A DNA stretch of 57,716 nt from Rhodoplanes tepidamans (lineage in GTDB: Bacteria > Pseudomonadota > Alphaproteobacteria > Rhizobiales > Xanthobacteraceae), in contig NZ_JAUSUJ010000035.1 of assembly GCF_030813915.1 (NCBI RefSeq), positions 1 to 57,716 of the forward strand, read 5' to 3'. A program made the position numbers and the translations under genes. Positions 1 to 16,129 of the stretch are shown in pieces (positions within the stretch are counted from its first letter, which is position 1; every line of letters starts with the position of its first letter). Under the pieces are notes generated by a model. That model saw only the letters and a list, made by a program, of their open reading frames with translations, made no database searches and was not told the origin of the DNA.

Positions 1-384
1 GTCGGCCATCCGGCCCCGATTCGCTGCTGTCCACATGGACAGCTTGAATCACGGCATCGACCGCCCCGCCACCTCAGTTTCCAAACGGGCTCTCAGACGG
101 TCCGCACCATCGCGGCCGCGCACGAGCGTCTGACGACCGAACTCGCCCGTGCCGGCGGCGTGCGCATCCGCCTCGACGACCTCGCCGAGTTCGACCTCGG
201 CCTCGTGCAGCTGGTGCTCGCCGCGCGGCGCAGCGCCGCCGCCGCCGGCAAGTCGCTCGCCCTCGCCGCGCCGGCGTCCGGCGCGCTGCGGACGACGCTC
301 GACCGGGCCGGCTTCCTCGCCATCGACCCCGCCGATCCGCTCGGCGGTCCCGCGTTCTGGCTGCAAGCAACGGACATCCCATGA
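1..384 (+). CDS. STAS-domain protein, 5' end unresolved
   Basis: The frame is open from the window edge to the TGA at 382-384, which overlaps the cheY start by four bases (ATGA). The clear part is a STAS fold: a helix (TIAAAHERLTTELARAG), a strand, an LDDLAEFD loop and an LVQLVLAARRSA helix. STAS proteins in chemotaxis operons are small phospho-acceptor or scaffolding proteins, and this gene leads into cheY. The only start codon in the frame is a GTG at 160, which would remove the first strand and helix. An ATG at 35 lies in another frame and stops after 32 codons. The gene therefore either begins before the window or carries a frameshift near 70-100. The family assignment is fairly safe; the start is not. 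Confidence 0.6.
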   Translation, partial: VGHPAPIRCCPHGQLESRHRPPRHLSFQTGSQTVRTIAAAHERLTTELARAGGVRIRLDDLAEFDLGLVQLVLAARRSAAAAGKSLALAAPASGALRTTLDRAGFLAIDPADPLGGPAFWLQATDIP

Positions 385-749
385 GCAAGACCATCCTCAA
401 CGTCGACGACTCCGCCAGCGTGCGCCAGATGGTGCAGCTCACGCTGCAGGGCGCCGGGTACCGGGTGCTCCAGGCCAACGACGGAGCCGACGGCCTCGCC
501 AAGGCGAAGGCCAGCCCGGTCGACATGGTCGTGACGGATCTCAACATGCCGGTGATGAACGGGCTCGCGCTGATCCGCGAGCTGCGCAAGCTGCCGAGCT
601 ACCGCGGCGTGCCGATACTGTTCCTGACGACGGAGTCGGACGCCGGCGTCAAGAAGGAGGCGAAGGAGGCCGGCGCCACCGGATGGATCACCAAGCCGTT
701 CCAGCAGGAGCAACTGGTCGCCGTGGTCAAGAAGGTGCTGGGCGCATGA
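381..749 (+). CDS. cheY: CheY-type single-domain response regulator
   Basis: A 122-residue receiver domain with no output domain. The acidic pocket is D9/D10, the phospho-acceptor is D53 (in VVTDLNMP), the switch threonine is T83 and the conserved lysine is K105 (KPF). CheY takes phosphate from CheA and binds the flagellar switch, or acts as a phosphate sink. It overlaps the STAS gene upstream and cheA downstream by four bases each, so the three are probably translationally coupled. Whether it is the motor-binding CheY or a sink cannot be told from sequence; no cheZ or fliM lies in the window. Confidence 0.95.
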   Translation: MSKTILNVDDSASVRQMVQLTLQGAGYRVLQANDGADGLAKAKASPVDMVVTDLNMPVMNGLALIRELRKLPSYRGVPILFLTTESDAGVKKEAKEAGATGWITKPFQQEQLVAVVKKVLGA

Positions 750-2806
750 CCATCATCGACGCGGCGGACACCTTCCGCCAGGAAGCCCAGGAGCTCCTGG
801 AGCAGCTCGAGCACACGCTGCTCGATCTCGAGCACAGGCCGGCCGACGCCGACCTGATCGACGGCGCCTTCCGGGCCCTGCACACGCTCAAGGGCTCGGG
901 CGCGATGTTCGGCTTCGAGCGACTCGCCGCCTTCACGCATCACGTCGAGACCGCGTTCGACCTCGTCCGCAAGGGCCGGGCGAACGCCAGCGCCGAGCTG
1001 ATCGCCCTGACCCTCCACGCCAAGGACCAGATGCGGCGCCTGATCGAGGCGCCCGCCGAGGCCGACGAGGCGGCCGGCGACACGATCCTGCGCGGCCTGC
1101 GCCTGATCCTCGAAGGCACGGCGGCGCCCGCCACCACCGACGCCACGCCGGCGCCCGTATCGGCACCGCCGTCCGGCGACGCCACCTGGCGGGTTTGCTT
1201 CCGGCTTCCCCGCGGCGCCATGGCGTCCGGAACCAATCCGCTGCTGCTGATCGAGGACCTGCACGCCCTCGGCAGCGCCACCGTGGTGGCGCGCAGCGGC
1301 GACATCCCGCCGCTCGAGGAGCTCGACCCCCTCGACTGTCATGTCGGCTGGGAGGTGCTGCTGACGACCGCGAGGCCCCGCGAGGCCATCGAGGAGGTGT
1401 TCATGTTCCTCCTCGACGACATGGAGCTGACCATCGAGCCGGTCGACGCCACCGACACTGCGCCCGCGACGCCGGCCGATCGGACCGCCGCGGCCGCGTC
1501 GTCGGCGCCGGCCAGTGACTCCGGCACCCGCACCGCGATGCCGGCCGAGACGCCGGCGTCCCCCGCCGCGGGCCCGTCCACGCCGGGCGCCGTGGCGGGC
1601 CCGTCCACGCCGGGCGCCGTGGCGGGCCGCGGCGGCGGCAGCGTGCGGGTTCCGGCCGAGCGGCTCGACGAGCTGATGGACCGGGTCGGAGAGCTGGTGA
1701 TCGCCCAGTCGCGGCTCAAGCAGATCGCCGCCGCCTCGCACGACCCGCAGGTCAAGTCGGTGACCGAGGAGATCGAGCGGCTCGCCCGCGAGCTGCAGGA
1801 CACCACCATGGGCGTCCGCATGATGCCGATCGGCTCGCTGTTCGGCCGCTTCCGCCGGCTCGTCCACGACCTGTCGCGCGATCTCGGGAAGGACATCGAG
1901 CTGATCACCTCGGGCGAGGAGACCGAGCTCGACAAGACCGTGATCGAACGGCTCGCCGATCCGCTGGTGCATCTCATCCGCAACGCCGGCGACCACGGGC
2001 TCGAGCCGCGTGACGGCCGCGCCGCCGCCGGCAAGCCGGCGACCGGGCGCATCACGCTGACGGCCCGCCATGCCGGCGCCGCCGTGCTGATCTCGGTCGG
2101 CGACGACGGCCGGGGTCTCGACCGCGACAAGATCCAGGCCCGCGCCGAGGAGAACGGCCTGCTCGCGCCCGGCGCCAAGCTCGCCGACGAGGAGCTGTTC
2201 AAGGTCATCTTCGCCCCGGGCTTCTCGACCGCCCACGAGGTGACCAACCTGTCCGGCCGCGGGGTCGGCATGGACGTGGTCAAGCGGACCATCGACGATC
2301 TGCGCGGCTCCATCGACGTCCGGAGCACGCCGGGGCAGGGCGCCGAGGTGACGCTGCGCCTGCCGCTCACCCTCGCCATCATCGACGGGCTCCTGGTGCG
2401 GGTCGGCCGCGGCCGTTACGTCATCCCGCTCGGCGCCGTCGAGGAGTGCGTCGAGCTGACGCCCGAGGACGATCTCCGCTCCAAGGGGCGGTGCTTCCTC
2501 AACATCCGGGGCGATCTCGTTCCCTACATCCGGCTGCGCGAGCAGTTCGCCTCGTCGCTCCCCGCCGATCCGTACCAGAAGGTCGTCATCGTCTCGGCCG
2601 GCGGGTTCCGGGTCGGCCTCGTGGTCGATCAGGTGATCGGCGACCACCAGACCGTCATCAAGTCGCTGTCGCGGCTCCATGCCGGCGTCGGCGTCTTCTC
2701 CGGCGCCACCATCCTGGGCGACGGAAGCGTCGCCCTGATCCTCGACGTGCCGCAGCTCGTCGCCGACGGGCAGGCCGCCGAGGAGCGGCTGAAGGCCGCG
2801 AGCTGA
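746..2806 (+). CDS. cheA: Chemotaxis histidine kinase CheA
   Basis: A 686-residue cytoplasmic kinase that autophosphorylates from receptor signals and passes phosphate to CheY and CheB. Domains in order: P1 HPt with phospho-His H46 (ALHTLKGSGAMFGF); a region near 145-225 that may be the CheY/CheB-docking P2; a Pro/Ala linker with a duplicated nonapeptide (see 1568-1621); P3 dimerisation from about residue 300 (VPAERLDELMDRVGELV); a P4 ATPase with N-box HLIRNAGDHGLE and G-boxes DDGRGLD and GRGVGMDVV; and a C-terminal CheW-like P5. Start ATG 746 overlaps the cheY stop. The frame is open further upstream to 149, but that part is antisense-type noise over the STAS and cheY genes. Confidence 0.97.
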   Translation: MTIIDAADTFRQEAQELLEQLEHTLLDLEHRPADADLIDGAFRALHTLKGSGAMFGFERLAAFTHHVETAFDLVRKGRANASAELIALTLHAKDQMRRLIEAPAEADEAAGDTILRGLRLILEGTAAPATTDATPAPVSAPPSGDATWRVCFRLPRGAMASGTNPLLLIEDLHALGSATVVARSGDIPPLEELDPLDCHVGWEVLLTTARPREAIEEVFMFLLDDMELTIEPVDATDTAPATPADRTAAAASSAPASDSGTRTAMPAETPASPAAGPSTPGAVAGPSTPGAVAGRGGGSVRVPAERLDELMDRVGELVIAQSRLKQIAAASHDPQVKSVTEEIERLARELQDTTMGVRMMPIGSLFGRFRRLVHDLSRDLGKDIELITSGEETELDKTVIERLADPLVHLIRNAGDHGLEPRDGRAAAGKPATGRITLTARHAGAAVLISVGDDGRGLDRDKIQARAEENGLLAPGAKLADEELFKVIFAPGFSTAHEVTNLSGRGVGMDVVKRTIDDLRGSIDVRSTPGQGAEVTLRLPLTLAIIDGLLVRVGRGRYVIPLGAVEECVELTPEDDLRSKGRCFLNIRGDLVPYIRLREQFASSLPADPYQKVVIVSAGGFRVGLVVDQVIGDHQTVIKSLSRLHAGVGVFSGATILGDGSVALILDVPQLVADGQAAEERLKAAS
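1568..1621 (+). repeat. 27-bp perfect tandem duplication in cheA linker
   Basis: Bases 1568-1594 and 1595-1621 are identical, and a shorter partial third copy (GCGGGC) follows. The unit is nine codons (AGPSTPGAV), so the duplication keeps frame and lengthens the flexible linker before the dimerisation domain. It is a candidate for length variation between strains. Confidence 0.9.
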
Positions 2807-2824: not shown

Positions 2825-3361
2825 ATGACCGAATCCGAAGCCGGCCGGCCCCTCGAGGTGCTGACCATGGACCTGCAGGGCCAGACCTTCGCGCTCGAGG
2901 CCAGCCAGGTCCGCGAGATCCTCGATCTCGTGCCGATCACCGAGGTGCCTGGCAGCGAGCCCTTCGTCAACGGCCTGATCAACGTGCGCGGCAAGGTCGT
3001 GCCGCTCGCCGATCTCCGCCTCAAGTTCGGGATGGAGCAGGCGCCCGACACCATCGACACCCGCATCGTCGTCACCGAGATCGAGATCGACCGGGTGCCG
3101 ACCGTGATCGGCATCCGGGCCGACAAGGTGCACGAGGTGACCGAGCTCGCCGCCTCGGCTCTCGCCGAGGTGCCGCGCGTCGGCACGCGCTGGCGCCAGG
3201 ACTACATCCGCTTCATCGGCAAGCGGGGCGACGACTTCATCGTCGTCCCCGATCTCGCCCGCATTCTTTCGCCGTCCTCCGCCGATCCGGCGCTCGACAC
3301 GTCAAAGTCAGAACGACGAACCCCGGCTTCCGCGCATGCCGGGCGTTCAGGAGACCTGTGA
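2825..3361 (+). CDS. cheW: CheW coupling protein, first copy
   Basis: A 178-residue CheW that links receptors to the P5 domain of CheA. The fold is marked by the [12 protein letters not shown] strand-helix, the [17 protein letters not shown] segment that normally contacts the receptor tip, and the [10 protein letters not shown] repeat. Start ATG 2825 has AGGAG at 2814-2818, six bases upstream. The last 25 or so residues are a hydrophilic tail beyond the usual fold. The TGA shares one base with the ATG of the first receptor gene. A second, diverged cheW follows that receptor, so the two may serve different receptor subsets. Confidence 0.95.
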
Positions 3362-5112
3362 TGCGCTTCACCATCAAGCTCAAGCTCGGCCTCGCCTTCG
3401 CGGTGGTCATCGTCCTGTCCGGCATCACCGCCTGGCTCGGCATCTCCAACCTGTCTTCGCTGGACGCGACGCTGGTCCGGCTCGTCGACGTGCCGGTGCA
3501 GCGGCTCGCCTTCTCGCTCGAGATGAACACCGAGCTCGTCTCGCTGATCCGCGCCGAGCAGAACCTGATCCTCGCCGAGACCAAGGAGGACATCGCCAAG
3601 TACGAGAACGAGATCCTCCACGAGCGTCAGGCGCTCCTGGCGCGCATCGACAAGGCGGAGGAGACCGCGACGGCGCAGAACAAGCCGATCTGGGCCGCTA
3701 ACCGCAACACGCTGAACCAGATCGGGAGTCTGCAGGACAAGATCCGCGGTCTGGTCGCGCAGGGCGCACGGGACCAGGCGCGAGCCATCTCGGCCGGCGA
3801 CCGGCGCAAGCTGACCAGTGACCTCCAGAAGCAGCTCGAACGGGCCGCCGACATCAACCGCGCGATTCTCCAGGACGCCAAGAGCGACGCGAACGCGCAG
3901 TACGAGAGCGCCCGCAACCTGATGCTCGCCGTGGTCGGGATCTCGCTGTTGTTCGCCGCGGTGATCGCCGTCTGGATGGCGACCAGCATCAGCCGCAGCC
4001 TCGCCCGCGCCGGTGCACTCGCCCAGGCCGTGGCACAGGGCGACCTCACCCGGACGCTCGACAAGGCCTCGAAGGACGAGATCGGCGACCTCATCGGCCA
4101 CGTCAACGACATGGTGGCGAAGCTGCGCCAGGTGGTGGCTGAGGCGCTCTCGGCATCGGACAACGTCTCGGCCGGCAGCCAGGAGCTGTCCTCGAGCGCC
4201 GAGGAGCTGTCGGAAGGTGCGACCGAGCAGGCCGCTTCGGCCGAGGAGGCGTCCTCGTCGATGGAAGAGATGGCCGCGAACATCAAGCAGAACGCCGACA
4301 ACGCGACGCAGACCGAGACGATCGCGCGCCAGTCGGCGGCGGACGCCGAGAAGAGCGGCGAGGCGGTCGGCCGCGCCGTCGACGCGATGCGCACCATCGC
4401 CGAGAAGATCACCATCGTGCAGGAGATCGCCCGCCAGACCGACCTCCTCGCCCTCAACGCGGCCGTCGAGGCGGCGCGGGCGGGCGAGCACGGCAAGGGT
4501 TTCGCCGTCGTCGCCTCCGAGGTCCGCAAGCTCGCCGAGCGCAGCCAGACCGCGGCGGCCGAGATCGGAACGCTGTCGTCGCAGACCGTCAAGGCCGCCC
4601 AGGAGGCCGGCGAGATGTTGACCCGGCTGGTCCCGGACATCCAGAAGACGGCCGAGCTCGTCTCCGAGATCAGCGCCGCCTGCCGCGAGCAGGACATCGG
4701 GTCGGAGCAGATCAACACGGCGATCCAGCAGCTCGACAAGGTGACGCAGCAGAATGCCTCGGCGTCGGAGGAGATGTCGGCCACCTCGGAGGAGCTCGCC
4801 GCCCAGGCCGAGCAGCTCCAGGCCAGCATCGCCTTCTTCCGTACCGACGACACCGAAGATGCACCGCGTCGGGCCCAGTCCGCGCGGGCGACGACGCGAC
4901 CCGCCAAGGCGGCCGCCGCGGCGGAGTCCGCGTCGCGAACCGCGAGGCTCGCGAAGCCGGCCGCCAAGTCGGCCGCCGGCGCCGCCGCGCTCGTCGATCA
5001 GGTGCGTGCTGCCTATGCCACTGGAAAGACGCCGACGAAGGCGGGTTTCCGGCTCGACATGTCGTCGGGGGGGCCGGACGCCCATGACGTCCAATTCGAG
5101 CGTGCGAGCTGA
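3361..5112 (+). CDS. Methyl-accepting chemotaxis protein with one HAMP unit
   Basis: A 583-residue transmembrane receptor. TM1 is near residues 9-28, a periplasmic four-helix-bundle type sensor lies at about 30-180, TM2 is near 190-210, and one HAMP unit follows ([20 protein letters not shown]...). The cytoplasmic hairpin has the usual tip ([21 protein letters not shown]). The C-terminus is an Ala/Lys-rich linker plus a tail ending [14 protein letters not shown], shared with the two receptors downstream. ATG 3361 is preferred over the GTG three bases earlier because both paralogues begin at the equivalent Met and AGGAG lies upstream at 3350-3354. No NWETF-like CheR/CheB docking peptide is present. 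The ligand is unknown. Confidence 0.93.
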
Positions 5113-5115
5113 GCC

Positions 5116-5643
5116 ATGACGCAGACCGGCACTGGCGAGACCTTCTACGTCACCATCGGGATCGGCCGCGAGATCTTCGCCGTGCCCGTGTCGATGGTGC
5201 TCGAGATCCTGCCGATGCGGGACGTATTCCGCATCCCCGACGCGCCGGCGCATCTCGACGGCCTGATCGACGTGCGGGGCCGCGCCGTCGCCGTGATCGA
5301 CCTGCGAACCCGGCTCGGGCTGCCGCGGGTCGGATCAGACGAGCAGACCCGCATCGTCGTGCTCGACGTGCCGCTGCCGGGCCGCAAGCTCGCCATAGGC
5401 CTCGTCGCCGATCGCGTGTTCGAGGTGGCGACGCTCGACGACGGGCGGCTCGAGCCGCCGCCCGATATCGGTACGCCGTGGAGCCACGACCACATCCTCG
5501 GAGTCGGCCGCCACGGCGGTGGCTTCGTCGCCGTGCTCGACATCGTGCGGTTGTTCACGGCGGACCCGGCCCTCGTCTCGGCGCAGCGGGCGATGCCCGC
5601 GGCCGCCGCCATCCTCGCGACGCCGGCCGAGCAGGCCGCCTGA
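5116..5643 (+). CDS. cheW: CheW coupling protein, second copy
   Basis: A 175-residue CheW-like protein lying between the first and second receptor genes, three bases after the upstream stop. It keeps the fold ([48 protein letters not shown]) but differs clearly from the first copy. It ends in an Ala-rich tail. A separate coupling protein suggests that the receptor arrays may mix two CheW types. The family is certain; the division of labour is inference. Confidence 0.93.
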
Positions 5644-5681
5644 CCACTGCCTCTGGAATGCCTCTTGCCAGGAACGCCCCG

Positions 5682-7541
5682 ATGCGCCTCACGATCAAGC
5701 TGAAGCTCGCACTCGCCTTTGCGACCATCATCGTCCTGTCCGGCATCACCGCCTGGCTCGGCATCTCCAACCTCGCCTCGCTCGACCAGACGCTGCAGCG
5801 GCTCGTCGACGGGCCGATGCAGCGCATGCAGTTCTCGCTGGAGCTCAACAGTGAACTCCTGACCCTGGTACGGGCCGAGAAGAACCTCATCACCGCGTCC
5901 TCGAAGGAGGAGACGGATCGGTTCGAGACCGAGATGGCTGCGATCCGCCAGTCGATCGGTGGCGCGCTCGAGAAGGGTGAGGCGACGGCCGCGACCGAGC
6001 GCCGACCGCTCTGGGTCGCCAGTCGGACGGCGTTCCAGCAATATGCCCTGGTTCAGGACAAGATTCGTGAGGCGATGCGGCGAGGTGAGCAGAACGAGGC
6101 TCGAGTTCTGTCCGGAACAGCCGCGCGCCAGCATGTCGGTGACGTGCAGAAGAGCTTGCGATCGCTCATCGAGGCCAATCAGAAAATTCTCGCTCAGGCG
6201 AAGGCCAACGCGGCCGAGCAGTACGAGAGCGCCCGCACGATGCTGATCGGCCTCGTCGCCTTCGCACTCTTCGTCGCGGTCGGCACCGCGCTCTTCATGG
6301 CGCTGTCGATCAGCCGCGGCCTCGCCAAGGCCGGTGCGCTCGCCCAGGCGGTGGCGATCGGCGATCTGAGCCAGGAAGTGACGGTCAAGTCGAACGACGA
6401 GATCAAGGACCTGGTCGATTCGCTCAACCAGATGACCACCAATCTGCGCACCAATGCGCAGGTGGCCGACACCATCGCCAACGGTGACCTCACCGTGCGG
6501 GTGCAGCGCTTCTCCGACAAGGACACGCTCGGCATCGCGCTGGAGCGCATGGTCTCGAAGCTGCGCCAGGTGGTGGCGGAGGCGCTGTCGGCCGCCGACA
6601 ACGTCTCGGCCGGCAGCCAGGAGCTGTCGTCGAGCTCGGAGGAGCTGTCGCAGGGCGCCACCGAGCAGGCCGCCTCGGCCGAGGAGGCCTCATCGTCGAT
6701 GGAGGAGATGGCCTCCAACATCAAGCAGAACGCCGACAACGCGACGCAGACCGAGAAGATCGCCCGGCAGTCGGCTGCCGACGCCGAGAAGAGCGGCGAT
6801 GCCGTGACCCGCGCGGTCGATGCGATGCGCACCATCGCCGAGAAGATCACCATCGTGCAGGAGATCGCGCGGCAGACGGACCTTCTGGCCCTCAACGCGG
6901 CCGTCGAGGCGGCGCGGGCCGGAGAGCACGGCAAGGGATTCGCCGTCGTCGCCTCCGAGGTCCGCAAGCTCGCCGAGCGCAGCCAGACCGCGGCGGCCGA
7001 GATCGGCACGCTGTCCTCGCAGACCGTCAAGGTCGCCCAGGAGGCCGGCGAGATGCTGACCCGGCTGGTCCCGGACATCCAGAAGACCGCCGAGCTCGTC
7101 TCCGAGATCAGCGCGGCGTGCCGCGAGCAAGACATCGGGGCGGAGCAGATCAACCAGGCGATCCAGCAGCTCGACAAGGTGACGCAGCAGAACGCCTCGG
7201 CCTCGGAGGAGATGTCGGCGACCTCGGAGGAGCTCGCCGCCCAGGCCGAGCAGCTCCAGGCCAGCATCGCCTATTTCCGCACCGACGAGAGTGCGGCGGC
7301 GGCTCCCGCGGCGGTGCGTCGCCCGGCGGTGCGCCAGTCCGCGGCGCCGAAGCAGGCCGCCGCGCCGGAGGGCGCGTCGCGGACCGCCAAGCCGGCCTCC
7401 AACGGTGCCAACAAGCTCGTCGATCAGGTTCGGGCCGCCTACGCTCAGCCGGGCCGCACCCAGTCGCGCGGCGGCTTCAAGCTCGACCTCTCGGCCGGCG
7501 GACCGGACGCCCACGACGCGCAGTTCGAGCGCGCGAGCTGA
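5682..7541 (+). CDS. Methyl-accepting chemotaxis protein with two HAMP units
   Basis: A 619-residue paralogue of the receptors on either side. It has the same N-terminal TM ([20 protein letters not shown]), a four-helix-type periplasmic sensor and TM2 near 190-210. Two HAMP units follow: one beginning [20 protein letters not shown] and a second with [20 protein letters not shown]. The signalling hairpin is nearly identical to its neighbours. The tail ends [17 protein letters not shown] 5682 has AGGA at 5670-5673; an in-frame ATG at 5658 is possible but has a poorer ribosome site. An 11-bp hairpin follows the stop. Confidence 0.92.
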
Positions 7542-7554
7542 CGCAAGCAGCTCC

Positions 7555-7595
7555 GGGCGCCGCGGATAGGGGGTCCCCCCGGTCCCGCGGCGCCC
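7555..7595 (+). terminator. Strong hairpin between second and third receptor genes
   Basis: Arms 7555-7565 and 7585-7595 are perfect 11-bp inverted repeats of pure G+C. The intervening 19 bases hold a run of G followed by a run of C. No T tract follows, so it is not a classical intrinsic terminator. It could attenuate read-through or stabilise mRNA ends within the operon. Confidence 0.55.
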
Positions 7596-7670
7596 CTCGC
7601 CGTCCACTCCGAAAGGGCTCCTGGCCCTCGAGTCCGATACCATCACCGCCGCACCGTTGACAGGTGACCG

Positions 7671-9632
7671 ATGCGCTTCACGATCAAGCTCAAGCTCGCC
7701 CTCGCCTTCACGACCATCATCGTCCTGTCCGGGGTCACGGCGTGGCTCGGGATCGCCAATCTCTCCAGTCTCGACGCCACGCTCGAGCGCATGGCCGACG
7801 GGCCGGTGAAGCGCATGCAGATGTCGCTCGAGCTGAACAACAACCTGCTGGCGCTGGTGCGGGCCGAGAAGAACCTGGTCATGGCCTCGACCAAGGAGGA
7901 GGTCCAGACCTACGACGCCGAGATCGCCAAGGATCGTCAGCAGCTGATCTCGCGCGTCGAAAAGGCCGACGAGACGGCGAGCGTGCAGAACAAGCAGCTG
8001 TGGGCGACGACGCGGAACGCCCTGCAGCAGCTCGCCACGGTGCAGGATCGACTGCGGGAGCATGTCCGGCAGGGCCAGCTCGACCAGGCCCGTGAGCTGT
8101 CGAACGGCCGGGGCCGCCAGGCCGTCGCCGAGATGCAGAAGAACCTCGCCACCGTCGTGGAGATCAATCAGCGTCGGCTGGAAGAGGCCAAGCAGGCCGC
8201 CAAGCAGGAGTACGAGAACGCCCGGCTGATGCTGATCGCCATCGTCGCCGCGGCGATCGCGATCGCCGCCGTGATCGCGATCTGGATCGCGCTCTCGATC
8301 AGCCGTGGCCTGTCGAGCGCCGGCGCACTGGCCCAGGCGGTGTCGCTCGGCGACCTCGATCAGACGCTCGCAGTCCGCACCAACGACGAGATCAAGGATC
8401 TCGTGGACGCCCTCAACCGCATGACCGCGAACCTGCGGGCCACGGCGGCGGTGGCCGAGAAGATCGCCGACGGCGAACTGAACGTCGCCTTCCAGCGGCT
8501 GTCGGACAAGGACGCGCTCGGCATCGCCTTCGAGCGGATGACCGCCAATCTGCGCACCAGCGCGGAGACGGCCGACACGATCGCCAGCGGCGACCTCACC
8601 GTGCAGGTCAAGCGCTTCTCGGACCGCGACATGCTCGGCATCGCGCTCGAGCGGATGGTCGAGAAGCTGCGTCAGGTCGTGGCGGAGGCGCTGACCGCCG
8701 CCGACAGCGTCTCGGCCGGCAGTCAGGAGCTGTCGTCGAGCTCGGAGGAGCTGTCGCAGGGCGCCACCGAGCAGGCCGCCTCGGCCGAGGAAGCGTCCTC
8801 GTCGATGGAGGAGATGGCCTCGAACATCAAGCAGAACGCCGACAACGCCTCGCAGACCGAGACGATCGCCCGCCAGTCGGCCGCCGACGCGGAGAAGAGC
8901 GGCCAAGCCGTCACCCGCGCCGTCGAGGCGATGCGCACGATCGCCGAGAAGATCAACATCGTCCAGGAGATCGCCCGGCAGACGGACCTCCTCGCCCTCA
9001 ACGCCGCCGTCGAGGCGGCCCGGGCCGGCGAGCACGGCAAGGGCTTCGCGGTGGTGGCGTCCGAGGTCCGCAAGCTCGCCGAACGCAGCCAGACCGCGGC
9101 GGCCGAGATCGGCACGCTGTCGTCGCAGACCGTCAAGGCCGCCCAGGAGGCCGGCGAGATGCTGACCCGGCTGGTCCCGGACATCCAGAAGACCGCCGAG
9201 CTCGTGTCCGAGATCAGCGCGGCGTGTCGCGAGCAGGACATCGGGGCGGAGCAGATCAACCAGGCGATCCAGCAGCTCGACAAGGTGACGCAGCAGAACG
9301 CCTCGGCCTCGGAGGAGATGTCGGCGACCTCGGAGGAGCTCGCCGCCCAGGCCGAGCAGCTCCAGGCCAGCATCGCCTATTTCCGCACCGAGGAGAGCAC
9401 GGCGGCGGCCCCGGCGCGTCGTCCGGCCGCCGCTCCGGGGGCGACCAAGTCCGCGGAGCGTACCGGGCGTCCGATGGCACCGTCCGCGAAGAGCGGCGCC
9501 GGCAAGCTCGTCGATCAGGTGAGGGCCGCCTACGCGCAGCCGTCCCGTGCGCCGGGAAGGAGCGGCGTCAAGCTCGACCTGTCGTCGGGTGGGCCGGACG
9601 CTCACGACGCGCAGTTCGAGCGCGCGAGCTGA
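7671..9632 (+). CDS. Methyl-accepting chemotaxis protein with three HAMP units
   Basis: A 653-residue receptor, third of the tandem set. TM1 and a four-helix-type periplasmic region resemble its neighbours, and TM2 is near residues 185-207. Three HAMP units are visible: [20 protein letters not shown], then [20 protein letters not shown], then [20 protein letters not shown]. The signalling hairpin and the C-terminal tail ([14 protein letters not shown]) match the first two. ATG 7671 has AGGTGA at 7662-7667. Poly-HAMP arrays are known from other receptors such as Aer2, where units alternate between conformations. The graded 1-2-3 series in one operon is the odd feature. Confidence 0.93.
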
Positions 9633-9653
9633 AGGCCGACGGGGACCGACGCC

Positions 9654-10556
9654 ATGAGTGGAGCTCTCGCCAGGGCGTCGTCCGACGCACAGAATGCCGT
9701 CGAGCCGAGCTGGGTCGACGGTCACGACAGGCTGAGGTCGCGGGACTTCCAGCGTCTCGCGACCTTCATTCACGGCTACAGCGGCATCAAGGTGCCGCCC
9801 AGCAAGGCGACCATGATCGAGGGGCGGCTGCGCAAGCGGGTCCGCGCCCTCGGCATGCGCAGCCTCGACGAGTACTGCGACTATCTCTTCCAGCGTGACG
9901 GTCTCGCCGCGGAGGAGATCCACCTGATCGACGTCGTCACCACCAACAAGACCGAGTTCTTCCGCGAGCCCGAGCATTTCCGCATCCTCGCCGAGGACGT
10001 GCTGCCGCGCATCATGGCGGAGCGGAGGGTGTCGGCACGTGCGCCCGTGAAGGTGTGGAGCGCCGCCGCGTCGACGGGCGCCGAGGCCTACACCATCGCC
10101 ATGGTTCTGGCGGAGCAGCGCCGCCGGATGCCCGATCTCGTCGGCGTCGTCTACGCGACCGACATCTGCACCGACGTGCTCGGCACCGCGCAGGGCGGCA
10201 TCTTCCCGGCCGAGATGGTGTCGCCGGTGCCGCCCGAGATGCGGTCCCGCTACGTCATGCGGGCCAAGGATCCAGCCTCGCGCCTGGTGCGGATCGTGCC
10301 GGAGCTGCGCGCCATGGTGCAGTTCGGTCGTCTCAACCTGATGGACGCGAGCTATCCGATGGACCGCGACCTGGACATTGTGTTCTGCCGCAACGTCCTC
10401 ATCTATTTCGACAAGCCGACCCAGCTCGCGGTTCTGCGCCGGCTCTGCGACCATCTGCGGCCGGGCGGCTACCTGCTGCTCGGCCATTCCGAGACGCTGT
10501 CCGGATTCGACCTGCCGGTGCGCCCGGCCGGCACCGCCGTGTTCCGCCGGAGCTGA
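9654..10556 (+). CDS. cheR: Chemotaxis glutamate methyltransferase CheR
   Basis: A 300-residue SAM-dependent methyltransferase that methylates receptor glutamates for adaptation. The N-terminal helical domain is followed by the Rossmann domain with TTNKTEFFREPEHF, an SAM-binding WSAAASTGAEAY segment, the YATDIC acidic loop and the CRNVLIYF signature. It follows the third receptor by 21 bases and precedes cheB by three. The receptors lack a terminal NWETF-type pentapeptide, so tethering, if any, would use another motif. Confidence 0.96.
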   Translation: MSGALARASSDAQNAVEPSWVDGHDRLRSRDFQRLATFIHGYSGIKVPPSKATMIEGRLRKRVRALGMRSLDEYCDYLFQRDGLAAEEIHLIDVVTTNKTEFFREPEHFRILAEDVLPRIMAERRVSARAPVKVWSAAASTGAEAYTIAMVLAEQRRRMPDLVGVVYATDICTDVLGTAQGGIFPAEMVSPVPPEMRSRYVMRAKDPASRLVRIVPELRAMVQFGRLNLMDASYPMDRDLDIVFCRNVLIYFDKPTQLAVLRRLCDHLRPGGYLLLGHSETLSGFDLPVRPAGTAVFRRS

Positions 10557-10559
10557 CGC

Positions 10560-11639
10560 ATGGCCTCGCCGATCCGTGTCCTCGTCGTCGACGACTCCGC
10601 CTCGGTGCGGCAGACGCTCGCCACCATCCTGGGCGAGGATCCGGACATCGAGGTGATCGGCACGGCCGCGGATCCGTTCGTCGCGGCGAAGCGGATCCAC
10701 GACGAGGTGCCGGACGTCATCACGCTCGACGTCGAGATGCCGCGCATGGACGGCATCACGTTCCTGCGCCGGCTGATGAGCCAGCGCCCGGTGCCGGTGG
10801 TGATGTGCTCATCGCTGACCGAGGCGGGCTCCGAGACGCTGCTCCAGGCGCTGGAGGCCGGCGCCGTCGACGTCATCCAGAAGCCGCGGGTCGGCGTCGC
10901 CCAGTTCCTGGTCGAGTCGCGCCTGCGCATCTGCGATGCCGTCAAGGCGGCGGGGCGGGCCCGGCTGCACTGCCTGCCACGGCGCCGGCCGGTCGCCGTG
11001 CCGCCCAAGAAGCTCACTGCCGACGTCATCCTGGCGCCGCCGCGGGCGAGCCAGGCGATGGCCCGCACCACCGAGACCGTGGTCTGCATCGGGGCCTCGA
11101 CGGGCGGCACCGAGTCGCTGCGGGCGCTGCTCGAGGTGCTGCCCGCCGACTGTCCGCCGATCCTGATCGTGCAGCACATGCCCGAGATGTTCACGGCCGC
11201 CTTCGCGCGCCGGCTGAACGGGCTGTGCGACGTTGAAGTGAAGGAGGCGGCCGACGGCGACACCGCGCTGCGCGGTCGCGTGCTGATCGCGCCCGGCGAT
11301 CGTCACATGCTGCTGCAGCGCAGCGGTGCGCGCTACTATGTCGGCATCAAGGACGGGCCGCTGGTGTCGAGGCACCGGCCGTCGGTCGACGTGCTGTTCC
11401 GCTCGGCCGCCCGCTGGGCCGGCTCGAACGCGGTCGGCATCATCATGACCGGCATGGGCGACGACGGCGCCCGCGGGCTTCTCGAGATGAAGCAGGCCGG
11501 TGCTCACACGGTCGCCCAGGACGAGGCGACGTCGGTGGTGTTCGGCATGCCCAAGGAGGCGATCGCGCTCGGCGCCGCCGATCGCGTGCTGCCGCTCGAT
11601 CGGCTCGCCAGCGAGATTCTGCGCGCCGGCGCTCCGTGA
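10560..11639 (+). CDS. cheB: Chemotaxis methylesterase/deamidase CheB
   Basis: A 359-residue response regulator with a receiver domain (D11/D12 pocket, phospho-acceptor D57) joined to a methylesterase domain. The catalytic triad is S180 (GASTGG), H206 (IVQHMP) and D302 (GMGDDGA). Phosphorylation by CheA activates removal of methyl groups from receptors. The linker between the domains is fairly long (about residues 125-170) and basic. It is the last gene of the operon and stops four bases before the stop of the converging gene downstream. Confidence 0.96.
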
Positions 11640-11643
11640 GCCT

Positions 11644-13614
11644 TCAGAACAGTACGTCGTCGAGGCTCGGCTCGGGCGCCGCGGCGATCGGCGGCGCCGC
11701 CGCGTGCGCCGGCAGGCCGGCCGCACGGCGCGCCGCGGGGGCATGGCGGGCGTGGATGTCGCGCTCGCGCGCCATCGTGTAGCGGGCGGCGATCTCGCCG
11801 AACACCGCCTCGGCCGCGGGGCCGTCCGGCGGCCTGCCGGCCGCGCCGGCCGCCACCTCGAAGTCCGCCGCGGCGGCACGCAGGGCGGCCTCGATCGTCT
11901 CGGCCCGGGCGAGGCCGGCGGCCGTCTCGTCGAGCAGGCCGACGACGGCGGTCCCGTCGCGGCCGAGCGCCACGAGCGCGCCGGCGAGGGCGTCGGCGAC
12001 GCCGTGCAGGCGCGCGAGGGCGGCATCCATCTGCGAGATGACCTCGGCGATCTCGGCGAGCCGCTCGGCCTGACGGCTGCCGGCGAGCGCGTCGGTGGTG
12101 TCGACGATGGTGCGGACGTCGGCGCCGGCCGCCACCGCCTCGGTCGCCGTGCGGGCGGAGGAGCGTGTGAGCTCGTCGGCGACCACGGCGAGGGGGCGCC
12201 CGATCGTGCCGAGCCGGCTGCTCTTCAGGGTCGCGTTGACGCCCATGATGCGGATGTCCGCCTCGACGGCCCGCACCGTTCCGATGTGGCCGACCAGCCG
12301 CTCGGCGATGCGCAGCACCTCGCTCATGATCGCGTCGGCCTGTTCGCGCGCGGTGCGGAAGTTCTCGAAGAGATCGCGGGCGCGCCGGACGTCGGCCTCG
12401 AGCTCGCTCAGGAACGAGTCGTCGGCGTGGGCGGCGGAGCCGTAGACCTCGCGGCCGAGCCGCACGATCTCGCGGGCATCGTGCCCGAGCTGGCCGAGCG
12501 AGCCGTGCACGGCGGCGATCTCGCGGGCGATCTCGTCGGCCGCGTCGGCGAGCTGGGCGGACTGCAGGGCGCATCCGGCGGCGGCGAGGGCGCGGCGCTC
12601 CTCGGCGGCGAGCCCGGCCCACGGACCGCCGTCGTCGCGCGCGTCGGCGACCCGGGCCAGCAGGGCGGCGCTGGCGATCACGTGCTCGATGCGCTGGCGT
12701 GTCGCGTCGCCGACCTGCAGGGCCATGACGACGCGGCCGACGCCGTCGGCGAGCTTGCGGGAGCGGCGGCCGACGTCGGCGGCGGCGCCGGCCGCGTTGC
12801 GCGACCGCGTCGTGATCAGTGCGATGCTGGCCTCGAGCCGGCGCGGCACCTCGACGGCCGTCTGGGCGTGGCGCGACGAGAAGTCCGCCTCGCCGGCGGC
12901 CGCCGAGGCGAGATGGCGGCCGACCTCGACCAGCTCGGCACGGAAATGCTGAAGATTGGTGTTGGTGATCGCCAGCGAACGGCCGATGCCGCCGATATAG
13001 TCGAGGAACTCGGCGCCGGCGTCGCCGATGCCGGAGGCGGTGATCCGCGCATTGATGGTCAGCACGTCGATGGTGCGGATCTCCTTGGCGATCTCGTCGA
13101 TGCGCCGGCGCAGGCCCGCCGTCACGGCGATCAGCCGGTCGAGGGTGGCGCGCTCGTCCCGCCGGGCGCCGCCGATCGCCCCGGCCCGGACTGCCACGGC
13201 GGACAGGCTCTCGGTGGCACGCCGGAAGGCGTCGCCGTCGAGCTCGCCCTGCAGGCTGCCGAACAGGCCGGTGAGATGCTCCAGGAGCTCCACCGAGGCG
13301 CCGAGCCGGCGGCCGGTTTCGAGGAAGGTCTCCTCTGCCACGCCGGCAGCAGCACCGAGCGCTTCGGCAGTGGCAAGGATGGCGTCACGCAAGGTCGGTC
13401 TCGCAAGCTCGGCGACGGCCGCAGTCGCGTCCGGGGACAGGGAGCGTCGCCGCGGGCCGGCGGCGAGGCCGGCTCCAACTTGATGATCTTTGGTTAAGGT
13501 CGGGTTGAGGACGCGAGCCGGAGCATCGCCGCGGTGCCGGCCGTCGCGGCGCCGGTCCGGGCCGATCCCGCCGTCGGGCGGTGCCAGGGTCGCAGATGCG
13601 CCAGGGGCGCGCAT
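11644..13614 (-). CDS. Soluble receptor-like chemotaxis protein with acidic C-terminal tail
   Basis: An Ala-rich, almost entirely helical protein of up to 656 residues with no membrane segment. Two segments echo the MCP hairpin tip: one near residue 190 (IDVLTINARITASG) and one near residue 440 (IRIMGVNATLKSSRLG) followed by RPLAVVADELTRSS, which parallels the receptor motif [13 protein letters not shown]. The final residues are PSLDDVLF, resembling acidic-hydrophobic CheY-binding tails such as that of CheZ. It converges on cheB with a four-base gap. The true start is probably downstream of 13614, since the first 50 residues look non-conserved. A role in the Che pathway is inferred. Confidence 0.7.
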   Translation of the reverse strand: MRAPGASATLAPPDGGIGPDRRRDGRHRGDAPARVLNPTLTKDHQVGAGLAAGPRRRSLSPDATAAVAELARPTLRDAILATAEALGAAAGVAEETFLETGRRLGASVELLEHLTGLFGSLQGELDGDAFRRATESLSAVAVRAGAIGGARRDERATLDRLIAVTAGLRRRIDEIAKEIRTIDVLTINARITASGIGDAGAEFLDYIGGIGRSLAITNTNLQHFRAELVEVGRHLASAAAGEADFSSRHAQTAVEVPRRLEASIALITTRSRNAAGAAADVGRRSRKLADGVGRVVMALQVGDATRQRIEHVIASAALLARVADARDDGGPWAGLAAEERRALAAAGCALQSAQLADAADEIAREIAAVHGSLGQLGHDAREIVRLGREVYGSAAHADDSFLSELEADVRRARDLFENFRTAREQADAIMSEVLRIAERLVGHIGTVRAVEADIRIMGVNATLKSSRLGTIGRPLAVVADELTRSSARTATEAVAAGADVRTIVDTTDALAGSRQAERLAEIAEVISQMDAALARLHGVADALAGALVALGRDGTAVVGLLDETAAGLARAETIEAALRAAAADFEVAAGAAGRPPDGPAAEAVFGEIAARYTMARERDIHARHAPAARRAAGLPAHAAAPPIAAAPEPSLDDVLF

Positions 13615-13867
13615 CCGCCGTATGCGTCCGGAACGCCAGTGTTCGGACGCGCACGTCTTGAGATTGCCAGCAGCGCGCCGGGATCGTCTGCGCGCGGGCG
13701 ATGCGGCGCGGTGGTGATTCAGTAGAGCCGGTCCATAGTTCTGCGCTCATCATGCAATTCCGACCCGGTGTTCGCGCCCGCCCGGATGCACGGCGCAATT
13801 CTGCGTGGTTCTACCGAAGCCTGTTTGTTTTCGCCCTTCTATATTGCGGGCCTGTCGAGGAGCCTCC

Positions 13868-16129
13868 ATGCAAGTGGGACCGAAGCCGGCGTGCCCGTCG
13901 CCGCCGGAGGAGACGAGTGCAGCGTCAGCGTCGCCTGGTGCCGGGGCGGACAAGTCCGCCACGCCCGGCCTCTCGGTCCGCCAGCGGCTGATCCTGATCG
14001 TCGTCATGGTCGCCCTGCCGATGGTGCTCCTGTCCGCCGCCACCGTCTGGCAGCTCGTCGAGCGGGAGCGCGCGAGCAACGCCCAGGCGATCCTCTACGC
14101 GGCGCATTCGATCATGAGCGCGGTCGAGGCGCAGCTCGGCAACTATGTCGCGGTCGGCCAGGCGCTCGGCGAGTCGCCGGCGCTGCAGGTGAACGATCTC
14201 GTCGTGTTTCGGGGCGAGGCGGAGCGGGCCACCATCGGGCTGCCCGGCGCCTGGGTGACGCTGGTGTCGCCCGACGGCCAGCAGCTGATGAACACGCTGC
14301 TGCCGCAGGACGAGGCGCTGCCGCGGGCGCCCGACAGCGTGATGGCGGGCGCGGCGCGCGCCTTCGCCGAGAGGCGGGTCGAGTTCACCGACGTCGTGAT
14401 GGGGCCGGTCGCCGGCGGTGCGGTGGTCGGCGCCGGCGTGCCGGTCTTCCGGGACGGTCGCCCCGCCTACTACCTGCTGATCGGCGTGCTGGCCAACGCG
14501 TTCCGGGATCTCCTCAACGACCGGCGCCTGCCGCCGGGCTGGCTGGTCGGGGTGGTCGATCGCGAGGGCAACTTCGTCGCCCGCTCCCTCGACCACGACC
14601 GCTGGGTCGGCAGCCCGGCCTCGGCCGAATGGCGCGCCGTCATGCATGTCGACGGCATGTCGGAGGTGCGCAGCGTCGAGGGCCGGCCGCTCATCAACGC
14701 CACCTCGGTGTCGCGGATGAGCGGCTGGGTGGTCGGGGTCGCGACCGAGCGGAACGTGTTCGAGGCTCCGATCCGCCGCACCATGATCACGGCCGTGCTG
14801 GTGACCTCGGGGGTGGCGCTGTTCAGCATGCTGCTCGCCGGCTGGGCGGCGCGGCGGATCACCGGTCCGATCGCCGCCCTGGAGACGGGCGCGGCGCGGC
14901 TGGAGCGCGGCGAACTGCCCGCCGTCCGCCCGACCTGGGTGCCGGAGGTCGATCACGCGCTCCACGCGCTCGACACGGCGGCCAGCACGATCGTCGCCCG
15001 CGAGCGGGCGCTGCGCGAGAACGAACACCGGATGGCGGCGATTCTCGACGTGCTGCCGGTCGGGGTGTCGCTGGTCGACCGCGAGGGACGGACGATCGTC
15101 GCCAACGGCAACTATCGCCGCTTCGTGCCGCGGATCGTGCCGTCGCGCGACGACGCCCGCCATCCGTTGTGGGAGGGCGTCGACGCGAACGGCCGGCGGA
15201 TCCCCCGCGAGGACTATCCATCGGCACGGGCGTTGCGCGGCGAGCCGGTCTGGCCCGGCGTCGAGTTCTTCTTCCGCGGCGACGCCACCCAGCCGCCGAC
15301 CTGGACGCGCGTCGCGGCGCTGCCGTTCCGCGACGAGAACGGCGCCGTCTCGGGCGCCGTGCAGATGATCGTCGACATCGACCAGGAGAAGCGCGCCGAG
15401 GAGGAGCGGCGGACCCTGCAGGCCGAGCTCCTGCATCTCTCCCGCCTGTCCGACATGGGGCAGATGGCGGCGGCCCTCGCGCACGAGCTCAACCAGCCGC
15501 TCACCGCGGTCGCGGTCTATATCGGCGGCTGCCAGCGCCTGGTCGGCCGGGACGGGCTCGACGAGGCCCGTCGCGACAAGCTGGTCGAGCTGATGCGCAT
15601 GATCAGCGAGCAGGCGCTGCGGGCCGGCGAGATCATCCGGCAGCTGCGCGACTTCGTGCGCAAGGGCGAGGGTGAGCTGAGGGTGGTCGGCGCCGCGACG
15701 CTGATGCGCGAGGCCTGCACGCTGGCGTTGGCGGCGGCGAAGCACAAGGGCGTCGCGGTCCGCCTCGACCTCGACGCGCCGGGCGAGATCCTGGTCAACA
15801 AGGTCCAGATCCAGCAGGTCGTCTTCAACCTGGTGCGCAACGCCGTCGAGGCGATGGAGACCAGCGAGCGCAAGGAGCTGGACATCCGGCTCGTCGCCGC
15901 CGGCGGGCACGTGGAGGTCGCCGTCGCCGACACCGGCTCCGGCCTCGCCCCGGAAATCGCCGACCGGCTGTTCATGCCGTTCGTCTCGACCAAGAGCCAG
16001 GGCATGGGAATCGGGCTCTCGGTGTGCCGCAATATCATCGAGGCACATCACGGGCGGATCTGGGCCGAGCGGAATCCCGCCGGCGGCACCGTGTTCCGCT
16101 TCCGGCTGCCGCGTCTCCGCGACGAATGA
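13868..16129 (+). CDS. Membrane sensor histidine kinase with PAS domain
   Basis: A 753-residue kinase. TM1 is near residues 40-60, a large extracytoplasmic sensor of dCache type lies at about 65-300, TM2 is near 310-330, then a HAMP-like segment, a PAS domain (MAAILDVLPVGVSLVDREG), a HisKA domain with the phospho-His in ALAHELNQPLTAV, and a HATPase with N-box NLVRNAVEAME and G-boxes DTGSGLA and GMGIGLS. The layout resembles DctB/FixL-type kinases. ATG 13868 has GAGGAG at 13857-13862; an in-frame start at 13805 has no such site. No response-regulator gene adjoins it, so its partner is elsewhere. Confidence 0.9.
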   Translation: MQVGPKPACPSPPEETSAASASPGAGADKSATPGLSVRQRLILIVVMVALPMVLLSAATVWQLVERERASNAQAILYAAHSIMSAVEAQLGNYVAVGQALGESPALQVNDLVVFRGEAERATIGLPGAWVTLVSPDGQQLMNTLLPQDEALPRAPDSVMAGAARAFAERRVEFTDVVMGPVAGGAVVGAGVPVFRDGRPAYYLLIGVLANAFRDLLNDRRLPPGWLVGVVDREGNFVARSLDHDRWVGSPASAEWRAVMHVDGMSEVRSVEGRPLINATSVSRMSGWVVGVATERNVFEAPIRRTMITAVLVTSGVALFSMLLAGWAARRITGPIAALETGAARLERGELPAVRPTWVPEVDHALHALDTAASTIVARERALRENEHRMAAILDVLPVGVSLVDREGRTIVANGNYRRFVPRIVPSRDDARHPLWEGVDANGRRIPREDYPSARALRGEPVWPGVEFFFRGDATQPPTWTRVAALPFRDENGAVSGAVQMIVDIDQEKRAEEERRTLQAELLHLSRLSDMGQMAAALAHELNQPLTAVAVYIGGCQRLVGRDGLDEARRDKLVELMRMISEQALRAGEIIRQLRDFVRKGEGELRVVGAATLMREACTLALAAAKHKGVAVRLDLDAPGEILVNKVQIQQVVFNLVRNAVEAMETSERKELDIRLVAAGGHVEVAVADTGSGLAPEIADRLFMPFVSTKSQGMGIGLSVCRNIIEAHHGRIWAERNPAGGTVFRFRLPRLRDE

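What the first reader, a model, noticed from the sequence alone, without database searches (positions are those of the whole stretch)
3361..9632. Three tandem chemoreceptors with one, two and three HAMP units
The paralogous receptors (583, 619 and 653 residues) share TM1, sensor type, signalling hairpin and tail, but carry 1, 2 and 3 HAMP units between TM2 and the hairpin (visible repeats of the GDLT/SDKD type). This looks like stepwise HAMP gain by duplication in one operon, giving a natural series for how HAMP number tunes signal phase or distance. Poly-HAMP receptors are known; an ordered 1-2-3 series in one operon is, as far as I know, not a described arrangement.
Basis: partly seen in the sequence, partly recalled or inferred. 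Interest (0 to 1): 0.75.

Follow-up and report, generated by a model that had tools for sequence, protein, structure and literature searches.

The report
Chemoreceptor trio with stepped HAMP lengths
One bacterial sensing operon carries three receptors for what looks like one shared kinase, differing by one and two 39-residue relay blocks, and related bacteria often keep such unequal sets, which offers a natural test of what receptor length and relay number do.

Summary
MCP1, MCP2 and MCP3 (583, 619, 653 aa) carry one canonical HAMP plus 0, 1 and 2 divergent HAMPs. Profile comparison supports HAMP for the extra units (97% probability; helix controls at most 8.7%). They are the only receptors with a 34H-like tip among 43 receptor genes read in the genome, and sit in a complete cheY-cheA-cheW-MCP-cheW-MCP-MCP-cheR-cheB operon, an F8-type accessory system like Rhizobium leguminosarum che2. 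In related operons the HAMP-to-tip distance is 136, 175, 214 or 253 residues in 91 of 91 receptors: whole 39-residue steps, uncompensated. Receptors of one operon usually differ in HAMP number (9 of 11 genera in a CheW-recruited survey, shuffle p 0.003), but equal sets and single receptors occur. Gene order varies (1-3-2 in 9, 1-2-3 in 5 of 40 loci). MCP3's middle unit resembles middle units of other genera more than its neighbour, so recent duplication inside this operon is not supported, though 38 columns cannot exclude it. A one-unit change is visible in a relative. No structure or function was tested; published array rules predict height-sorted patches on one kinase.

The parts
381..749 (+). 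cheY
   Evidence: ORF; lies before cheA in relatives
746..2806 (+). cheA (start at ATG 746, overlapping cheY's stop)
   Evidence: NCBIfam CheA models, best E 1.5e-129, below their curated cut-offs
2825..3361 (+). cheW1
   Evidence: PF01584 above cut-off
3361..5112 (+). MCP1, 583 aa, one HAMP
3973..4131 (+). MCP1 canonical HAMP (aa 205-257), directly followed by the hairpin
   Evidence: PF00672 E 2.1e-10
4123..4887 (+). MCP1 signalling hairpin (approximate end), 34H-like: 7 residues shorter in each arm than E. coli Tsr
   Evidence: alignment to 3zx6 and 6s1k; start
5116..5643 (+). cheW2
   Evidence: PF01584 above cut-off
5682..7541 (+). MCP2, 619 aa, two HAMP units
6294..6449 (+). MCP2 canonical HAMP (class A)
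   Evidence: PF00672 E 2.5e-11
6453..6566 (+). MCP2 divergent HAMP (class Z, next to hairpin)
6561..7325 (+). MCP2 signalling hairpin (approximate end)
7671..9632 (+). MCP3, 653 aa, three HAMP units
8283..8441 (+). MCP3 canonical HAMP (class A)
   Evidence: PF00672 E 8.1e-9
8442..8555 (+). MCP3 divergent HAMP (class M, middle)
8559..8672 (+). MCP3 divergent HAMP (class Z, next to hairpin)
8667..9431 (+). MCP3 signalling hairpin (approximate end)
9654..10556 (+). cheR
   Evidence: NCBIfam CheR E 3.5e-59, below its curated cut-off
10560..11639 (+). cheB
   Evidence: NCBIfam CheB, above cut-off

Best explanation
This is a self-contained F8-type accessory chemosensory operon: one CheA, two CheW, CheR, CheB, CheY and its own three 34H-like receptors. 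The receptors share one hairpin type, so they should all report to the same CheA/CheW (inferred); in one relative two hairpins are identical in DNA, as gene conversion would leave them. Between TM2 and the hairpin they carry a canonical HAMP that takes the membrane signal and 0, 1 or 2 divergent HAMPs that relay it, each adding exactly 39 residues (length shown; relay role inferred from the family). Because nothing in the HAMP-to-tip stretch compensates this length, the receptors should stand at three heights, and by published rules for arrays they should sort into separate height-matched patches served by the same kinase (inferred). Units are gained and lost whole, by unequal exchange between neighbouring HAMP repeats (seen in one relative).
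For: Only 3 of 43 receptor genes read have this tip, and they lie beside their own cheA; CheW-domain matches elsewhere lie in one other cluster. 34H-like hairpin. Operon layout shared by relatives. HAMP identity of the extra units. Ladder 136/175/214/253 in 91 of 91 and 72 of 78 in the wider set, the 6 others off by one residue. Junction code: N before LR if a HAMP follows (56/56 canonical, 25/27 divergent), R/K if the hairpin follows (34/34, 56/56). G053: 988 identical nt from the HAMP/hairpin junction to the last codon of MCP1 and MCP2, whose sensors are 49% identical. Unequal HAMP numbers within operons: 19 of 21 CheW-recruited multi-receptor operons, 9 of 11 genera, p 0.0028. L100: two tandem receptors differing by one unit with a hybrid unit at the joint. 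Array rule: passages of PMC6759762 and PMC6628036.
Against: No array, protein or phenotype was measured, and no structure prediction ran (queue full in 11 tries), so rise per unit and height are not computed. 18 of 39 complete CheW-recruited operons have a single receptor, so the ladder is not needed for such a system. Operons with equal HAMP numbers exist: L129 [2,2,1], L146 [2,2], L111 [2,1,1], L045 [2,2]. Unequal sets may be inherited, not selected. Hairpin homogenisation is not general: R. elegans MCP2 and MCP3 hairpins agree at only 66% of fourfold sites. Chemoreceptors bend at hinges (PMC6628036 passages), so unequal lengths might still share an array.
Confidence: 0.45

Rival explanations
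1. HAMP number tunes the signal (sign, gain or resting bias) and not the place in the array: each divergent HAMP is a further two-state relay, and the receptors sit together, with hinges absorbing the length difference.
For: HAMP conformers can send opposite signals and divergent HAMPs need their glycine to pack in chains (PMC3570549 passages). Position classes and the junction code show units fitted to what follows them.
Against: Length changes by exactly 39 residues with no compensation, whereas in A. brasilense linkers keep receptor heights equal (PMC6759762 passages). No functional data either way.
Confidence: 0.3
2. Neutral outcome: tandem repeats are gained and lost by unequal exchange, any whole number of units works, and the unequal sets are inherited from an old 1+2 pair of receptors.
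For: A unit change by exchange is visible; in the 4-unit receptors of L043 and L049 the two middle units are nearest relatives; single-receptor operons are common (18 of 39); sister sensors with equal numbers exist (L045).
Against: Excess of unequal sets even at one operon per genus (9 of 11, shuffle mean 4.9); sister sensors of one operon with different HAMP numbers in L061, L055 and G113 (the two G113 genes lie on different contigs).
Confidence: 0.22
3. The extra segments are plain coiled-coil spacers, not HAMP.
For: PF00672 does not hit them on the full-length proteins, and single units alone stay below its cut-off.
Against: Profile comparison 97% against helix controls at most 8.7% (the two hairpin arms against each other 19.6%); Gly in 85 of 85, Pro in the connector of 73 of 85 and in no helix; isolated two-unit stretch of MCP3 passes the Pfam cut-off.
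Confidence: 0.02

Closest known systems
F8-class accessory chemosensory clusters with 34H receptors: R. leguminosarum che2 (mcrABC), B. diazoefficiens che3
   Same: [quoted passage not shown] Rhizobium relatives here share the operon and HAMP-number sets
   Different: The passages seen do not mention differing HAMP numbers, though PMC7617929 speaks of 'longer signalling domains' of mcrABC; figures and supplements were not seen. In the window cheW2 lies between MCP1 and MCP2 and the order is 1-2-3
Aer2-type poly-HAMP receptors (P. aeruginosa Aer2, three N-terminal HAMPs)
   Same: Canonical/divergent HAMP logic: DExG in membrane-proximal units, lone Gly in chained units (PMC3570549 passages)
   Different: Aer2 is described there as soluble; here the stack starts at TM2, repeats with a 39-residue period and varies within one operon. 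No Aer2 chain was among the 16 PDB matches
A. brasilense 36H and 38H receptors with extra HAMPs
   Same: HAMP number varies among receptors of one class (38H; PMC6759762 passages)
   Different: There linkers are reported to keep the height equal; here length differs by whole units
FrzCD di-HAMP (Myxococcus xanthus)
   Same: HAMPs missed by standard domain search, two in series (PMC12077210 passages)
   Different: Cytoplasmic DNA-binding receptor, about 53-residue spacing with a helical linker

Membership tests
HAMP domain, divergent (poly-HAMP) subtype | Two amphipathic helices joined by a connector with conserved GDL and hydrophobic connector residues | tested here: met
   Column pattern over 85 units; hhalign 97% to the canonical units; sequence level only
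HAMP domain, divergent (poly-HAMP) subtype | DExG in canonical units, single Gly without Glu in divergent units | tested here: met
   DE in 91 of 91 canonical (fourth residue K 53, G 30 of 91, so DExG is not full); D-x-L-G in 84 of 85 divergent, Glu in 0 of 85. Partly by construction: the seed patterns asked for these motifs. The window's own units show them by eye
HAMP domain, divergent (poly-HAMP) subtype | Passes the Pfam HAMP cut-off | tested here: inconclusive
   Five single extra units 14.9-18.6 bits (cut-off 25); two-unit stretch of MCP3 25.9 bits
HAMP domain, divergent (poly-HAMP) subtype | Parallel dimeric four-helix bundle structure | not tested
   Structure prediction never started, queue full (11 calls from 65 to 103)
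F8-class chemosensory system | 34H receptors: one heptad less in each hairpin arm than 36H Tsr | tested here: met
   7-residue gap in each arm against Tsr (MCP1 only); junction-to-tip distance is the same in MCP2 and MCP3
[quoted passage not shown]
   cluster content as in PMC8429497 passages
F8-class chemosensory system | CheA placed in class F8 by the published class models | not testable with these tools
   Class models not available; the label rests on receptor class and gene content
Array of receptors of one length | All receptors of one kinase have equal membrane-to-baseplate length | tested here: not met
   By sequence only: 0, 39 and 78 extra residues between canonical HAMP and tip

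The most novel reading that the evidence does not exclude
HAMP number is a height code: one kinase system deliberately keeps receptors of two to four fixed heights, in whole 39-residue steps, so that receptors with the same hairpin sort into separate array patches and can signal without direct receptor-receptor coupling. That would be an exception to, or a use of, the one-length-per-array rule.
Probability: 0.22. Interest if true: 0.85.

Novelty: new variant of a known kind. Interest (0 to 1): 0.6.

Why it matters
Array work holds that receptors only cluster with others of the same length class, and that as few as 14 extra residues in the signalling domain separate them (PMC6759762 passages). 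Here receptors with one hairpin type, beside one kinase gene, differ by 39 and 78 residues, and such sets recur in several families of the order. That gives matched material (down to a tandem pair 92-97% identical in DNA that differs by one HAMP, L100) for two open questions: what extra HAMPs do to a signal, and whether receptor height must match within an array.

Tried and rejected
Coiled-coil reading of the extra segments: rejected. Recent local duplication MCP1 to MCP2 to MCP3 in this operon: not supported by unit identities or the unit tree, but not rejected by the AU test (all Rhodoplanes-group M and Z units as one clade p 0.75; M units as one clade p 0.92; with junction columns removed 0.67 and 0.22). 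In that second tree the M units needed 2 changes, and 5 with the junctions removed, so M/Z differences sit largely at the junction. Hybrid-unit test in the window: MCP2's unit is nearer MCP3's Z than M in both halves, so no hybrid as in L100. 'The single-HAMP receptor always comes first' (my note): false; L043 and L045 differ, and 6 of 21 multi-receptor operons of the CheW survey do not start with it. Own-genome search with HAMP_2 (PF18947) did not hit the window. Surveys with CheA as query failed twice; CheW1 was used. Literature: 10 searches; passages only were seen of PMC12077210, PMC3570549, PMC6628036, PMC7184735, PMC6759762, PMC7617929 and PMC8429497. Airola 2010 is not held and Dunin-Horkawicz and Lupas 2010, both cited in PMC3570549, was not looked up; no supplement was read.

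Selection and dropped rows. HAMP models were built from seed patterns that already contain DE(I/V/L) or S-x-(K/R)-D-x-L-G, so motif tallies are partly circular; distances and junction residues were not in the patterns. Of 129 receptor ORFs 37 lay in L001-L026 and L059 and were left out: many repeat longer loci, but the receptors of G009, G028, G125, G064, G050, G024, G123 and G046 were thereby missing from the 91; all but G009 came back as L105-L111. Of the other 92, one (L057, no HAMP hit) was dropped. The sensor tree lacks L049's two cut sensors. L027's MCP3 is missing from the junction tally because a pattern picked the wrong Gly; it lies on the ladder. In L041 a HAMP hit at residue 141 was ignored. 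The unit tree used 22 of the 40 loci.
Full report
What is there. The window holds cheY (381-749), cheA (746-2806), cheW1 (2825-3361), MCP1 (3361-5112), cheW2 (5116-5643), MCP2 (5682-7541), MCP3 (7671-9632), cheR (9654-10556) and cheB (10560-11639), all on the + strand. The three receptors have the same Pfam layout with one PF00672 HAMP each.

The extra units are HAMP. Full-length Pfam search does not show them, which could have refuted the finding. But a profile of 91 canonical units against one of 85 extra units gives 97.0% probability over 48 columns with one 2-residue gap; six comparisons with hairpin or sensor helices give 0.09 to 8.7%, and the two hairpin arms against each other 19.6%. 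Isolated single units have HAMP as best Pfam hit below the cut-off; the two-unit stretch of MCP3 reaches 25.9 bits against 25, and 14 of 14 homologous stretches match HAMP at E up to 1. The PDB matches of that profile are HAMP entries, mostly named AF1503 (best E 0.0016). The 39-residue column pattern has Gly in 85 of 85, Pro in the connector of 73 of 85 units and in no helix, and hydrophobic positions spaced as in two helices. First units carry DE(I/V) in 91 of 91, extra units D-x-L-G in 84 of 85 with no Glu, the distinction between canonical and divergent HAMPs made in passages of PMC3570549; the seed patterns asked for these motifs, so the tallies are partly circular, and the wider survey has receptors whose first HAMP lacks DE.

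A private system. PF00015 finds 45 places in the genome. One search read 44 ORFs, one gene twice, so 43 genes; two weak places gave none. Only the three window receptors have the tip [13 protein letters not shown]; the other 40 have QTNLLALNATIEA. CheW-domain matches (6) lie in this cluster and one on C14. Against Tsr the MCP1 hairpin lacks 7 residues in each arm, so it is 34H-like; the class of the other 40 was not settled. PMC7184735 and PMC8429497 passages tie 34H receptors to F8 systems; the latter describes such clusters with three receptors in R. leguminosarum (mcrABC) and B. diazoefficiens. PMC7617929 passages say che2 had no effect on free-living motility or competitive nodulation but may influence bacteroid development.

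A length ladder. From the canonical HAMP Gly to the hairpin tip the distance is 136, 175, 214 and 253 residues for 1, 2, 3 and 4 units: 34, 33, 20 and 4 receptors, 91 of 91 (in one search one of the 20 read 223 because a pattern hit an earlier GEL, and the check put it on the ladder). In the wider set 72 of 78 lie on it and 6 single-HAMP receptors are off by one residue. So each unit adds exactly 39 residues and this stretch does not compensate. The residue before the LR that ends each unit is N when another HAMP follows (56 of 56 canonical, 25 of 27 divergent) and R or K when the hairpin follows (34 of 34 canonical, 56 of 56 divergent), whatever the HAMP type.

Distribution. Sample 1, recruited by similarity to MCP3, so not neutral: among 40 loci 1-2-3 occurs in 5 (window, R. 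elegans, Rhizobium sp. P32RR-XVIII, Neorhizobium galegae, isolate AFS048116), 1-3-2 in 9, 1-3-4-2 in 2, 1-2-4 in 1, and the rest hold one or two receptors; 32 of 33 operons with two or more receptors have all-different HAMP numbers (shuffle mean 15.3, maximum 24 in 10,000). Sample 2, recruited by CheW1: 50 of 397 genomes of the order match at 1e-32, own included, and 3 of 289 of the class at 1e-30, own included. I fetched 45 of the 51 other genomes' loci, leaving out 6 at contig ends. With the window 39 of 46 were complete, 18 of them with a single receptor. Of 21 with two or more, 19 have all-different HAMP numbers (shuffle mean 10.8, maximum 18); with five MCP-recruited loci added it is 21 of 24. 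Taking one per genus, and the non-distinct operon where there is a choice, it is 9 of 11 (mean 4.9, p 0.0028). Shuffles ignore inheritance, so this is suggestive only. In L061 (G037) the order is cheW1-MCP(1)-cheW2-MCP(3)-cheW2-MCP(4)-cheW2-MCP(2).

History. The sensor tree (89 rows) puts the Rhodoplanes receptors and two of G113 in one group of 10 (99) apart from Rhizobiaceae, and needs 19 changes of HAMP number. The unit tree (22 loci, 111 units) groups units by position, single, first, middle and last, with 3 changes, the minimum, middle units together at 94. MCP3's middle unit shares 33 of 38 residues with R. elegans' middle unit, 23 with MCP2's divergent unit and 20 with its own neighbour. 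AU tests reject neither history and a second tree does not keep the middle units together, so position could also act by convergence at the junctions. Hairpins can be homogenised: in G053 988 nt from the HAMP/hairpin junction to the last codon are identical between MCP1 and MCP2 while the sensors are 49% identical (an assembly artefact is not excluded). In the window MCP2 and MCP3 hairpins agree at 80% of fourfold sites, against 62% and 73% with their R. elegans orthologues; but R. elegans MCP2 and MCP3 agree at 66%, and window MCP1 with MCP2 and MCP3 at 73% and 72%, so the effect is weak there. In L100 (another family, 1-2-3) MCP2 and MCP3 are 92.0% identical in DNA up to the joint and 97.2% from it to the hairpin end, differ by one 39-codon unit apart from small tail indels, and the 2-unit gene's last unit matches the middle unit in its front (36 of 39 nt, 28 of 39 to the last) and the last unit in its rear (72 of 75, 49 of 75 to the middle), the mark of unequal exchange.

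How it most likely works. Shown: one cheA, three receptors of one hairpin type, lengths in whole HAMP steps. Inferred: all report to that CheA. PMC6759762 passages state that arrays form only between receptors of the same length class, that a 14-residue insertion in the signalling domain separates receptors, and that in A. brasilense linkers keep heights equal; PMC6628036 passages give 35 A per HAMP and say receptors of different lengths segregate. By those rules these receptors should occupy separate, height-sorted patches on the same kinase. The main rival is tuning of signal sign or gain by the HAMP stack; a neutral origin also remains. None was tested.

Verdict. A new variant of a known kind: an F8-type operon with a strict HAMP-number ladder that recurs across families, and for which my paper searches showed no description.

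Noticed in passing
window 11644-13614, - strand: Uncharacterised 656-aa protein convergent with cheB: no Pfam match at E 0.01, weak match to a Thermotoga-type MCP hairpin (2ch7, E 0.0012) and two MCP-tip-like segments by eye; a homologue lies in 63 of 76 loci that hold this CheA and CheB (some genomes counted twice). It may be a conserved soluble accessory of F8 systems.
   Followed up: partly
G000 contig C3:70085-72772 (locus L098): One 1965-aa frame with about ten HAMP units in a row (HAMP and HAMP_2 models), a long poly-HAMP protein outside this operon.
   Followed up: no
L060 (G053), MCP1 and MCP2: 988 identical nucleotides from the HAMP/hairpin junction to the last codon in two receptors with diverged sensors: gene conversion or an assembly effect.
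   Followed up: partly
L061 (G037) 5631-15295: A cheW copy beside each of four receptors with 1, 3, 4 and 2 HAMP units, as if receptor-cheW pairs were amplified together.
   Followed up: no
G000 contig C5:199420-218436 (loci L076, L077): A run of eight receptors of the other class in about 19 kb.
   Followed up: no
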